Of a stretch of DNA of 64,000 bases, positions 2,290 to 11,359 are shown in pieces. Source of the stretch: an uncultured Rubrobacteraceae bacterium (GTDB taxonomy: Bacteria > Actinomycetota > Rubrobacteria > Rubrobacterales > Rubrobacteraceae); the NCBI GenBank assembly GCA_902806085.1, contig CADCVH010000001.1, positions 1 through 64,000 on the forward strand, given 5' to 3'. How positions within the stretch are numbered: the first letter of the stretch is position 1; each line of letters begins with the position of its first letter. A program made the position numbers and the translations under genes. The notes beneath the pieces were generated by a model, which saw only the letters and a list, made by a program, of their open reading frames with translations, made no database searches and was not told where the DNA came from.

Positions 2290-2388
2290 TACGCTTGGCC
2301 TGTCCACGAAAAGGCAAACCCGCCGCGAGGCGGGGGCGCAAAGCCCACGGGCCTCTCCTCTCGGGAGAGGCTGCCGGGCCGCCGAAGG
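2290..2388 (+). promoter_or_regulatory. Cyclic di-GMP-I (GEMM) riboswitch
   Basis: The diagnostic GEMM-I elements occur in order. GGCAAACC is at 2313-2320, then a P2 stem CCCGCC with a GCGA tetraloop (GNRA type) and GGCGGG, then GCGCAAAGCC at about 2336-2345. A P3 stem follows, built on GGGCCTCTCC and its complement, closing with GCCGGGCC near 2373-2380. The GNRA loop docks into the second hairpin in known members. The 3' edge runs into GAAGGAG (2384-2390), the ribosome binding site of the HD-GYP gene. P1 may pair CTTGGC (2293-2298) with GCC(G)AAG and so mask that site. This suggests translational control by c-di-GMP; the direction (on or off) cannot be read with certainty. Confidence 0.8.
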
Positions 2389-8523: not shown

Positions 8524-8838
8524 GACGGCCTCGAGCGGTGGGTCGAACGTGGAGAAGGCGAAGGCGGCGCCGTGGACCCGTCGGCGCGCCGGAGCCCGGC
8601 GCCTTAACCTGACCGGTACGCGTCCGTCACTCGCCCGGACCTCAAAGGCTACGACCCGAGACCCTCGAGGTTCAGGTTCATGGGAAGGGCAACGAGGGGA
8701 GGATGGTCCACGTCGAGGGCGGGGCCGACCGGGCCGCTCACGACGTGTGAAGCGGACGACCAGCCCGGGGGACGGACCCCCGGCGGTCGTGTAATAAACT
8801 CAGTCGGTCGACGAAGTTCCCGATCAAAGGAGAAATCT
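8524..8838. other. Intergenic region with a GC-rich hairpin
   Basis: No supported gene. CCGGGGG...CCCCCGG near 8771-8790 forms a short stem and is followed by TCGTGTAATAAA, which may be a weak terminator or part of the promoter of the next gene. AAAGGAG (8826-8832) is the ribosome site of the aldo/keto reductase. The Arg-rich frames here look like chance. Confidence 0.4.
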
Positions 8839-9825
8839 GTGAGAAGCCGGAATCTGGGCGGCGAGGGGCTTGTGGTATCCGAGATCGGCCTCGGCTGCAT
8901 GGGAATGAGCGAGTTCTACGGCACCGAGGACGACGAAGAATCCATCGCCACCATCCACCGCGCTATTGAGCTCGGCGTCACCTTCCTCGACACCGCCGAC
9001 ATGTACGGCCCGTTCACCAACGAGCGGCTCGTCGGCAGGGCCATAGCCGGGCGGCGCGAGCAGGTCGTGCTAGCCACCAAGTTCGGCAACGAGCGCGCCG
9101 AAGACGGCACCAGGCTCGGCGTCAACGGCCGGCCGGATTACGTAAGGAAGTCCTGCGACGCCTCCCTCGGGCGGCTGGGCGTGAACCACATAGACCTCTA
9201 CTACCAGCACCGGGTCGACCCCGACACGCCCGTCGAAGAGACCTTCGGGGCCATGAAGGAGCTTGTCGAGGCCGGGAAGGTCCGCTACCTCGGCATCTCC
9301 GAGGCGGCGCCCGAGACAATCCGCAAGGCGCACTCGGTGCACCCGCTCAGCGCGTTGCAGACGGAGTACTCGTTGTGGAGCCGGGACGTGGAGGACGAGA
9401 TCCTGCCGACCGTCCGCGAGCTCGGCATCGGCTTCGTCGCCTACAGCCCGCTTGGACGCGGTTTCCTAACCGGCCAGATCCGGAGCCCCGAGGACTTCGA
9501 CGAGGGCGACTACCGCCAGAACTCCCCGCGCTTCCAGGGCGAGAACTTCCACAAGAACCTGGAGCTCGTCGAGAGGGTGCGCGAGATCGCCGACGAGAAG
9601 GGCGTGGCCCCCGGCCAGCTCGCCATCGCGTGGCTGCTCCACAGGGGCGAGGACATCGTCCCCATCCCGGGCACCAAGCGCCGCCTGTACCTCGAAGAGA
9701 ACGCCGCCGCCGTGGACGTGGAGTTGTCCGACGAGGACCTGGGGCGCATCGACGAGGTCGCCCCGGCTGGCGCCGCCTCAGGCGGGCGCTACGACGAGGC
9801 GGGCATGGGCACCGTCAACCGCTAG
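8839..9825 (+). CDS. Aldo/keto reductase, YajO/Tas-like group
   Basis: The protein has 328 residues from GTG 8839, with AAAGGAG six bases upstream. It is an (alpha/beta)8 NADPH-dependent oxidoreductase. Motifs are [13 protein letters not shown], the [12 protein letters not shown] segment (catalytic Asp and Tyr), VLATKFGNE (catalytic Lys), [12 protein letters not shown] (catalytic His), and the cofactor-binding [17 protein letters not shown]. In this subgroup enzymes reduce aldehydes or ketones. The VOC gene starts 9 bases after the stop, so the two probably form an operon, perhaps in aldehyde or methylglyoxal handling. Substrate cannot be read from sequence. Confidence 0.9.
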
Positions 9826-9833
9826 GGGGACCT

Positions 9834-10223
9834 TTGGCTCCGGACGTCAGGCTGGACCATTGCGTGATCCACGTCTCCGAGTGGGCCCGGTCCAACGCCT
9901 TCTACCGGGACGTGCTGGGCGCCGAGCCCGTGCGGGCGCGCGCCGGCTGGGCCTACCGCTTCGGCGCCCAGCAGCTCAACGTGCACGGCCCGGGCGTGGA
10001 CGCCGAGCCGGTCGCCAGGGTTCCCGTGCCGCCGGGCGGGAGCGACCTCTGCTTCGAATGGCCCGGGGAGATCGAAGGGGCGGAGCAGCACCTCCGGCGT
10101 CACGGCGTCGAGGTGGAGATGGGCCCGGTCGGACGCCGAGGGGCCGGGGGCGCCGGCACGAGCCTGTACTTCAGGGACCCCGACGGCTCGCTCCTGGAGT
10201 TCATCTCGTACGCGAACGCTTGA
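9834..10223 (+). CDS. VOC/glyoxalase-superfamily protein
   Basis: The protein has 129 residues from TTG 9834, after AGGGGGA. The two beta-alpha-beta-beta-beta modules of the vicinal oxygen chelate fold can be followed: LDHCVIHVSEW...FYRDVLGAEPV, FGAQQLNVHGPG, LCFEWPGEIEGAEQHLRRHG and SLYFRDPDGSLLEFISY. Metal-ligand candidates are His9, His54 and Glu in LLEF. Members include glyoxalase I, fosfomycin-modifying enzymes and dioxygenases; this short single-domain form resembles uncharacterised virulence-protein-like VOC members. It is linked to the aldo/keto reductase. Confidence 0.85.
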   Translation: MAPDVRLDHCVIHVSEWARSNAFYRDVLGAEPVRARAGWAYRFGAQQLNVHGPGVDAEPVARVPVPPGGSDLCFEWPGEIEGAEQHLRRHGVEVEMGPVGRRGAGGAGTSLYFRDPDGSLLEFISYANA

Positions 10224-10328
10224 AGGGTCACGCGCGACCTCACGAGCCGCACGTCGCCGACCTGTGGCATGATCCCAAATGGGTAGTACTACGCGCCGGC
10301 GCGATAGCCGGCGGAAGGGGGAAGGACG

Positions 10329-10793
10329 ATGGCCGAAGTGAAGTACGTCTCGCGGGTAGAGGTGGAGCCGGTCGAGGGGAAGACGCGGCGGGCCTACGTG
10401 CCGGGCGAGGAGGAGCCGGTTCTCTTCGGGGTCCACTCGGAGGTCGCCGAGCACTACGGGGTCTCCCCGGGGGACGAGGAGCCGCACGCGAGCACTTTGG
10501 ATTACGTGGTGGCCGCGGCAGGCGGGTGACTGCTCGGCACCTTTGCCGGCGCGCTGGGAGCGCGCCAAGTCTCTTTCGAGTCGCTCAGGGCCGACACCGT
10601 GGGGGAGGTGGAGGCCGAGGGGAAGGTGCTGGTGATCAAACGCATCAAACAGACCTTCCACCTTGGCGTCGCCGAAGAGGACCGCGAGACCGTCGAGCGG
10701 GTGCTCTCGGTGTACGCGGACTCGTGCCCGGTGGCGCGGTCACTCAAGGGGAGCATCGAGATCTCGAGCGAACTCGACTTCGTCCCTACGTAA
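10329..10793 (+). CDS. OsmC-like peroxidase with in-frame TGA at the catalytic Cys (candidate selenoprotein)
   Basis: Codons 1-66 (MAEVKYVSRVEVEP...LDYVVAAAGG), TGA at 10527-10529, then codons 68-154 (LLGTFAGALGARQVSFESL...DFVPT) form one uninterrupted frame. In OsmC/Ohr proteins the motif AAxGGC-x-x-G-T-F carries the peroxidatic cysteine exactly where TGA stands. The second catalytic cysteine is kept (SCPVARSL, Cys133). The proteins reduce organic peroxides. Reading TGA as Sec gives a complete 154-residue OsmC protein; read as stop, neither half is useful. An 8-bp hairpin follows the TGA at a suitable distance. GGAAGGGGGAAGG precedes ATG 10329. The rival explanation is a TGC to TGA nonsense mutation or a sequencing error, since other nonsense-bearing genes occur in the window. 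Confidence 0.65.
10548..10566 (+). promoter_or_regulatory. SECIS-like hairpin downstream of the OsmC TGA
   Basis: GGCGCGCT (10548-10555), loop GGG, AGCGCGCC (10559-10566): an 8-bp perfect stem. The apical loop starts 26 bases after the TGA and opens with G. From memory, bacterial SECIS elements need a hairpin whose loop lies roughly 16-37 bases after UGA, with a G in the first two loop positions. This fits, but GC-rich DNA makes hairpins by chance. Confidence 0.5.
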
Positions 10794-10829
10794 ATTGTCG
10801 TAATTTTTCTTAAAGAACGCGCAACACTG

Positions 10830-10858
10830 TTGACAAGGGTTTGGGACGGCGCTAGAGT
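10830..10858 (+). promoter_or_regulatory. Strong sigma-70-type promoter
   Basis: TTGACA (10830-10835), 17-base spacer, TAGAGT (10853-10858), embedded in a local AT-rich patch (TAATTTTTCTTAAAG). The consensus -35 and ideal spacing make it the clearest promoter in the window. It would drive the 28-residue ORF at 10897. Confidence 0.7.
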
Positions 10859-10896
10859 GCTGTCGCTGTTGTTGTCGTGAAAGGACCGAGGCTTTG

Positions 10897-10983
10897 ATGC
10901 ACATCCACCACGCGAACATAGGAGTTCCGGTGTTCGGGGGAGAGGTGCGTCCCAAGGTCCGCCCGGTCACGATGAGAACGTGA
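10897..10983 (+). CDS. Short ORF, 28 aa, His-rich N-terminus
   Basis: ATG 10897 to TGA 10981 encodes a 28-residue peptide that begins MHIHHANIGVPVFGG and ends RPVTMRT. AAAGGA (10880-10885) is a plausible ribosome site about 11 bases upstream. It lies between a consensus promoter and a strong hairpin (11009-11042), so promoter, ORF and hairpin form a self-contained unit of about 180 bases. It could be a leader peptide controlling the following genes, a small protein, or a chance ORF in a small RNA. I know no matching family. Confidence 0.45.
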   Translation: MHIHHANIGVPVFGGEVRPKVRPVTMRT

Positions 10984-11008
10984 GCATTTAGCTCAACAGA
11001 CTTCTCAA

Positions 11009-11042
11009 CGAGGCCCCCGGACCAAACGGACCGGGGGCCTCG
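11009..11042 (+). terminator. GC-rich hairpin, likely terminator or attenuator
   Basis: CGAGGCCCCCGG (11009-11020) pairs exactly with CCGGGGGCCTCG (11031-11042) around a 10-base loop. AGCTTTGC follows, so the T-run is weak. Its position 25 bases after the short ORF suggests a terminator or attenuator. Confidence 0.55.
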
Positions 11043-11146
11043 AGCTTTGCGCCAACGGGCAGGGCTACGGTCTCCGACTCCGATCCCGTAACGGGCACCA
11101 CCCGAGGTACGGACGCGACGGAAAGAGACGAGAAGAGGAGAAAGGG

Positions 11147-11359
11147 ATGTACCGGGATTTCTACGCAGCGCAGGACCGCGCGCTCAGGCAACAAGAGCTC
11201 GCCGACAAGGTGGCCGAGCGACAACGTTACGCGCGGCCAACGAACAGGCTCTCGATGCGCGCGCGGCTGGCCCGCCGGCTCTTCCTGCTGGCGGTCGCCG
11301 CCGAGAGAGAAGAGACGTGGCGCGTGGTCTGGGAGCGGCTCGAAGCCAGGCGGCCGTAG
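11147..11359 (+). CDS. Small basic helical protein (70 aa)
   Basis: The 70-residue protein has many Arg and Ala residues: MYRDFYAAQDRALRQQELADK, RARLARRLFLLAVAAEREETW and VVWERLEARRP. It should be almost all helix, with an amphipathic or weakly membrane-associated stretch near 45-55. AGAGGAGAAAGGG precedes the ATG. The ABC-2 exporter genes follow at 11478, so it may belong to their operon. No known domain was recognised. Confidence 0.6.
   Translation: MYRDFYAAQDRALRQQELADKVAERQRYARPTNRLSMRARLARRLFLLAVAAEREETWRVVWERLEARRP

What the first reader, a model, noticed from the sequence alone, without database searches (positions are those of the whole stretch)
10329..10793. Candidate selenocysteine-containing OsmC-like peroxidase
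One frame encodes a complete OsmC-like protein except for TGA at codon 67, exactly where the peroxidatic cysteine (AAAGG-C-LLGTF) is expected. The second cysteine (CPVAR, residue 133) is kept, no other lesion is present, and an 8-bp hairpin with a G-first loop begins 19 bases after the TGA (loop at 26). Cys-to-Sec exchange at redox cysteines is the normal pattern of bacterial selenoproteins, and OsmC-like selenoproteins have, as I recall, been reported from marine metagenomes. If true, this organism uses Sec and the gene would be missed or split by standard annotation.
Basis: partly seen in the sequence, partly recalled or inferred. Interest (0 to 1): 0.82.

Follow-up and report, generated by a model that had tools for sequence, protein, structure and literature searches.

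The report
Second OsmC-type selenoprotein family
A Rubrobacter-like bacterium encodes a small peroxide-defence protein whose key sulfur amino acid is very probably replaced by selenocysteine, read from an internal stop codon; the same arrangement is kept in relatives across several phyla and forms a second lineage, apart from the one such family already catalogued.

Summary
Confirmed. The ORF at 10329-10793 is an intact OsmC-superfamily gene with one in-frame TGA (codon 67, 10527-10529). All 110 homologous loci examined, from six or more phyla, have TGA at that column, and 109 of 109 keep the second Cys. More distant relatives with Cys (TGC/TGT) there come from one family whose genomes lack SelA. 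The window's own genome has tRNA-Sec, SelA, SelB and a SelD that itself carries Sec. An 8-bp hairpin with loop GGG (10548-10566, loop 26 nt after the TGA) is conserved with codon choice frozen across codons 68-79; synonymous recoding rarely keeps it. AlphaFold gives a confident OsmC fold.

The gene is not a member of the catalogued OsmC-like selenoprotein family (NCBIfam NF041052, UxxT, from the Sargasso Sea): it scores 32 bits against a cut-off of 95, its motif is U-L-L-G-T, and a tree puts the two Sec groups on opposite sides of a 100/99 branch. Peroxidase activity is inferred, not shown.

The parts
10329..10793 (+). OsmC-superfamily selenoprotein gene, 154 aa plus TAA stop, Sec at codon 67
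   Evidence: Open except for TGA67; PF02566 50 bits; 110/110 homologues with TGA
10527..10529 (+). in-frame TGA, read as selenocysteine at the peroxidatic position
   Evidence: TGA invariant in the family; TGC/TGT in Sec-less relatives
10548..10566 (+). bacterial SECIS-like hairpin, 8 bp, loop GGG
   Evidence: Fold and position; codon-level constraint and pair counts
10725..10727 (+). codon 133, conserved second (resolving) cysteine in CPVAR
   Evidence: 109/109 Cys; TGC and TGT both used, 13 each in Rubrobacteraceae
10315..10328 (+). probable ribosome-binding site upstream of ATG
   Evidence: Sequence GGAAGGGGGAAGGACG-ATG read directly; inference
9834..10223 (+). upstream gene, VOC/glyoxalase-like by eye, ends in a normal TGA stop
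   Evidence: Present beside osmC in two close relatives; no Pfam hit; shows TGA is an ordinary stop here
8821..9825 (+). aldo/keto reductase gene upstream (start codon not determined)
   Evidence: PF00248 277 bits; orthologues near osmC in other Rubrobacteraceae

Best explanation
The gene encodes a selenocysteine-containing OsmC-superfamily protein. During translation the UGA at codon 67 is recoded by SelB-Sec-tRNASec, recruited by the hairpin 19-37 nt downstream, so that a full 154-residue protein is made. By homology with OsmC/Ohr, Sec67 is the peroxidatic residue: it reduces an organic or fatty-acid hydroperoxide, becomes a selenenic acid, and is resolved by Cys133 as a selenenylsulfide that a cellular dithiol system reduces. 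Shown here: the gene, conservation of the UGA, the hairpin and its codon-level constraint, the Sec machinery, the Cys replacement in Sec-less relatives, the OsmC fold. Inferred: actual Sec insertion, the catalytic chemistry, the substrate and the reductant. The confidence given is for Sec insertion; for the hydroperoxidase chemistry it is about 0.65.
For: TGA in 110/110 homologous loci and Cys133 in 109/109 (loci). Own-genome tRNA-Sec at 64 bits, cut-off 47, anticodon UCA; selB 316 bits; selA 486 bits; selD 353 bits with its own Sec, KAGUGSK. 29 of 33 relatives carrying the TGA form have selA or tRNA-Sec; the other four are MAGs of 75-82% completeness. The four genomes with the Cys form lack selA. 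Codons 68-79 show a synonymous-difference ratio of 0.30 against 0.87 elsewhere in Rubrobacteraceae (0 of 20000 random column samples as low) and 0.70 against 0.92 in other phyla (1 of 20000). Stem pairs: Rubrobacteraceae mean 7.96 of 8, recoded 5.2; Cys relatives 3-6. AF2 pLDDT 94.5, best PDB match the OsmC-like protein 2onf, Z 15.2.
Against: No protein-level evidence. Peroxidase activity is inferred from fold and redox pair only. Sequence identity to solved OsmC/Ohr proteins is low (7-21%), and the catalytic Arg/Glu of Ohr was not mapped. Some homologues (SAR202-type Chloroflexi; L139) have a shifted or unrecognisable hairpin.
Confidence: 0.95

Rival explanations
1. Pseudogene or sequencing error: the TGA is a lesion in an ordinary Cys OsmC gene.
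For: A single TGA in an otherwise intact frame is what a fresh nonsense mutation looks like. One relative, G033, does hold a second degenerate copy with further stops.
Against: TGA in 110/110 loci from separate assemblies and phyla; purifying selection downstream of the TGA.
Confidence: 0.01
2. UGA is read as another amino acid (Trp by a reassigned code, or Cys by an unusual UGA-reading tRNA).
For: Cys is the residue in Sec-less relatives. Cys-inserting tRNAs that read UGA exist in some bacteria (own knowledge).
Against: TGA ends the upstream gene. The only tRNA-Sec-like gene over cut-off in the genome is a tRNA-Sec with selA/selB beside it; the weaker matches checked are ordinary Ser, Leu, Thr and Tyr tRNAs. 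The hairpin constraint needs an RNA-level role.
Confidence: 0.02
3. Sec is inserted, but the protein is not a hydroperoxide reductase; it may be a thiol-disulfide or other redox protein, or act on other electrophiles.
For: The OsmC superfamily includes members without shown peroxidase activity (own knowledge). The Rubrobacteraceae neighbourhood includes DsbA-like genes and an AhpD-related gene, and identity to proven peroxidases is low.
Against: Both redox residues sit 66 apart, as in E. coli OsmC (own knowledge: Cys59/Cys125), in the OsmC fold. AhpD-type 'peroxidase-related' neighbours fit peroxide defence.
Confidence: 0.3
4. It belongs to the known OsmC-like selenoprotein family NF041052, only diverged.
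For: The best NCBIfam match is NF041052; same superfamily and same Sec position.
Against: 32 bits against a cut-off of 95. At E 0.001 only 17 of 34 family members match at all, the best E-value being 2.4e-9. True members have U-x-x-[TS] and GC[YFH] motifs. The tree splits the two groups with Cys OsmC proteins on the NF041052 side, branch 100/99.
Confidence: 0.08

Closest known systems
OsmC-like selenoprotein of the Sargasso Sea / GOS (PMC1088965, PMC2398784; NCBIfam NF041052 OsmC_like_Se)
   Same: OsmC superfamily, Sec at the peroxidatic position, second Cys downstream, in-frame TGA
   Different: Redox motif UxxT and GC[YFH] there, U-[LM]-[LT]-G-T and CPVAR/CPVYR here; separate clade; score far below the family cut-off. 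That NF041052 is the Sargasso family is inferred from the shared UxxT motif
OsmC/Ohr Cys peroxidases (E. coli OsmC 1nye/1qwi, Xylella Ohr 1zb9) and the OsmC-like Ta0195 (2onf)
   Same: Fold (Z 12.7-15.2), two redox positions
   Different: Sec instead of the peroxidatic Cys; 11-19% identity
Cys relatives of this family in Sec-less Actinomycetota (G051, G110, G120, G169)
   Same: Same clade (32 of 47 rows), motif C-L-[IT]-GT-[FL], CPNAR in most
   Different: TGC/TGT at codon 67, hairpin not kept, no selA in the genome

Membership tests
OsmC superfamily (PF02566) | Profile match above gathering score | tested here: met
   50 bits against 27.5
OsmC superfamily (PF02566) | OsmC fold | tested here: met
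   AF2 pLDDT 94.5; Foldseek 2onf TM 0.79/0.86; the top 34 VIA rows are almost all named OsmC, OsmC-like or Ohr proteins
OsmC/Ohr peroxidases | Two redox positions, peroxidatic and resolving | tested here: met
   U67 in 110/110, C133 in 109/109
OsmC/Ohr peroxidases | Catalytic Arg and Glu of the active site | not tested
   R20, H36, H42, D58 are invariant but were not mapped on a peroxidase structure
OsmC/Ohr peroxidases | Thiol- or selenol-dependent hydroperoxide reduction | not testable with these tools
   Needs enzymology
Bacterial selenoproteins | In-frame TGA at a site that is Cys in homologues | tested here: met
   TGA 110/110; TGC/TGT in Sec-less relatives
Bacterial selenoproteins | SECIS-like hairpin shortly after the TGA with G in the apical loop | tested here: met
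   8 bp, loop GGG 26 nt after TGA; conserved. bSECISearch itself was not run
Bacterial selenoproteins | Sec machinery in the genome | tested here: met
   selA, selB, selD, tRNA-Sec
Bacterial selenoproteins | Selenium in the protein | not testable with these tools
   Needs 75Se or mass spectrometry
NF041052 OsmC_like_Se (Sargasso Sea family) | Score above curated cut-off of 95 bits | tested here: not met
   32.1 bits; over 34 members the best E-value is only 2.4e-9
NF041052 OsmC_like_Se (Sargasso Sea family) | Motif UxxT | tested here: not met
   ULLGT here; FULLTQ, FULLTH and FUMFSQ in members over cut-off
NF041052 OsmC_like_Se (Sargasso Sea family) | Common clade of the Sec forms | tested here: not met
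   Separated by a 100/99 branch, with Cys OsmC on the NF041052 side; long branches meet there, so a denser tree is wanted

The most novel reading that the evidence does not exclude
This is a second, independently evolved OsmC-type selenoprotein family, Sec-bearing in every member found in Sec-using genomes, spread over Actinomycetota, Chloroflexota, Acidobacteriota, Gemmatimonadota, Myxococcota and Poribacteria. It is missed by current family models and so presumably truncated in standard annotation.
Probability: 0.75. Interest if true: 0.6.

Novelty: new variant of a known kind. Interest (0 to 1): 0.52.

Why it matters
It adds a widespread Sec lineage to the OsmC superfamily, probably a second conversion of the same catalytic position, in soil, hot-spring and marine bacteria. 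Rubrobacter taiwanensis, Solirubrobacter pratensis and Lucifugimonas marina carry it, which makes it testable, and it gives annotators a clear model to build (U-[LM]-[LT]-G-T, CPVAR, SECIS).

Tried and rejected
Pseudogene, sequencing error and alternative code were rejected on conservation, selection and tRNA data. Membership of NF041052 was tested on 34 members, in 30 genomes (28 of them carriers; no match over cut-off) and against members over cut-off from the phylum of one carrier genome, G200. Plasmid records held no relative. A survey of flanking genes outside Rubrobacteraceae found no recurring neighbour. One search failed because 'of' needs a G handle. The first script for the Cys relatives read the wrong file and was rerun. 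The regex was too loose; one search replaced it.

Full report
Observation. The frame 10329-10793 encodes 154 residues with one interruption, TGA at 10527-10529 (codon 67), between AAAGG and LLGTF; Cys133 lies in CPVAR. Pfam OsmC matches at 50 bits, cut-off 27.5. A hairpin of 8 bp with loop GGG spans 10548-10566. Upstream lies a plausible Shine-Dalgarno (GGGAAGGA).

Is the TGA meaningful? Searching 197 related genomes and the GTDB species genomes gave 110 loci in which codon 67 could be aligned. It is TGA in all 110, and the second Cys is kept in all 109 that cover it. They come from Rubrobacteraceae, Solirubrobacterales, Acidimicrobiia, Chloroflexi (SAR202, Caldilineaceae, Dehalococcoidia), Acidobacteria, Gemmatimonadetes, a deltaproteobacterial/Myxococcota MAG and a Poribacteria MAG. 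(Some loci occur twice, once per collection; 93 distinct sequences entered the codon alignment.) Downstream of the TGA the protein is under purifying selection (dN/dS 0.16-0.37 against Rubrobacteraceae relatives).

Cys relatives. Six related genes without a stop at this column (G051, G110 twice, G120, G169 twice) have TGC or TGT there. All come from one family, f14, and none of those four genomes has selA; only G110 has a weak tRNA-Sec match of 51 bits. Of 33 genomes with the TGA form, 29 have selA or tRNA-Sec, and the four without are MAGs of 75-82% completeness. So Sec form and Sec machinery go together.

Machinery. The window's own genome holds tRNA-Sec (C130, 64 bits, UCA anticodon), selB and selA next to it, and selD on C74, itself a selenoprotein (KAGUGSK). 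selA and tRNA-Sec lie 2-2.5 kb apart here as in other Rubrobacteraceae, so C130 is unlikely to be a contaminant. Other tRNA-Sec-like matches that were checked are ordinary Ser, Leu, Thr and Tyr tRNAs. TGA is an ordinary stop elsewhere, for example in the upstream gene.

SECIS. In Rubrobacteraceae codons 74, 75, 76 and 78 are almost or completely frozen (GGC 25/26, GCG 26/26, CTG 26/26, GCG 25/25), while the same amino acids elsewhere vary freely. Over codons 68-79 the observed/expected synonymous difference is 0.30 against 0.87 elsewhere, and 0.70 against 0.92 in the other phyla; random column sets reach this in 0 and 1 of 20000 draws. 23 of 24 distinct Rubrobacteraceae sequences form 8 of 8 pairs; recoded versions do so in 2%. 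The pairing positions were chosen from the observed hairpin, so the recoding test alone is not a discovery test; the independent evidence is the codon freezing and the contrast with Cys relatives (3-6 pairs). Loop GGN starts at +27 in most phyla. SAR202-type Chloroflexi use a different register (GCC-CUUGA-GGC). Covariation in the strict two-sided sense is scarce, because first and second codon positions are held by the protein.

Fold and chemistry. AlphaFold gives pLDDT 94.5 with the OsmC order of elements; U67 lies in the long helix 56-78 and C133 between two later helices. The best solved match is the OsmC-like Ta0195 (2onf, Z 15.2), followed by OsmC and Ohr structures; the sequence alignment pairs one of its Cys with U67 and a later Cys with C133. 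From established OsmC/Ohr chemistry I infer that Sec67 attacks a hydroperoxide and Cys133 resolves it. In other Rubrobacteraceae the gene lies near an AhpD-type 'peroxidase-related' gene (TIGR01926), a DsbA-like gene and/or an aldo/keto reductase, consistent with redox defence; this is association only.

Comparison with the known. OsmC-like selenoproteins were reported from the Sargasso Sea (3 sequences, UXXT) and GOS (5 sequences, UxxT), and reviews of 2022 and 2026 list only that UxxT type (PMC1088965, PMC2398784, PMC9312934, PMC13188914). NCBIfam has a model, NF041052. Sec members above its cut-off that I fetched read FULLTQL, FUMFSQL and FULLTHV with a second motif GC[YFH]. The present family scores 32 bits against 95, none of 30 genomes searched (28 of them carriers) has a match over cut-off, and a 47-row tree puts the present family plus its Cys relatives on one side of a 100/99 branch and NF041052 Sec proteins, nested with Cys OsmC proteins, on the other. 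The simplest reading is two separate Cys-to-Sec events. Within the present clade support is low and long branches meet, so whether f14 reverted from Sec to Cys or kept an ancestral Cys is open. Papers on Rubrobacter xylanophilus count five selenoproteins and a tRNA-Sec there (PMC1794560, PMC5330540), so Sec use in the group is known; OsmC is not mentioned in the first of these.

Verdict. The gene is a selenoprotein gene with high confidence; its family is a new variant of a known kind; activity is inferred.

Noticed in passing
window 10828-11050: Conserved unit downstream of osmC: promoter-like TTGACA-17-TAGAGT, a 28-codon ORF (MHIHHANIGVPVFGGEVRPKVRPVTMRT, 10897-10980), then a strong GAGGCCCCCGG/CCGGGGGCCTC hairpin, then a conserved 70-aa gene (11147-11359). 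The motif PVFGGEVRP is kept in at least five other Rubrobacteraceae loci, and FGGEVRP occurs twice in L024: leader peptide, small peptide or RiPP-like precursor?
   Followed up: partly
window 2304-2387: c-di-GMP-I-GGC riboswitch aptamer, 60.6 bits, gathering 59.
   Followed up: no
own genome C74:4030-4953 (L018): SelD carries its own in-frame TGA (KAGUGSK), so this genome has at least two selenoprotein genes.
   Followed up: partly
L139 (G078), codon-67 equivalent: Divergent member with TGA but without the GAL.AR hairpin codons; its SECIS, if any, differs.
   Followed up: no
L140 (G033 C346) and L141 (G030 C1:3821617-3822028): A second, degenerate copy with TAA and TAG in G033, and a frame-broken copy in G030: decay or assembly error.
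   Followed up: no
L064: Record named Acidobacteria bacterium MGR_bin29, but its osmC falls inside the Rubrobacteraceae clade with 100/98 support: mis-binned contig or transfer.
   Followed up: no
L160, L161, L166: NF041052 Sec members over cut-off: two in one genome (G257), with ULLT, UMFS and ULLT motifs.
   Followed up: partly
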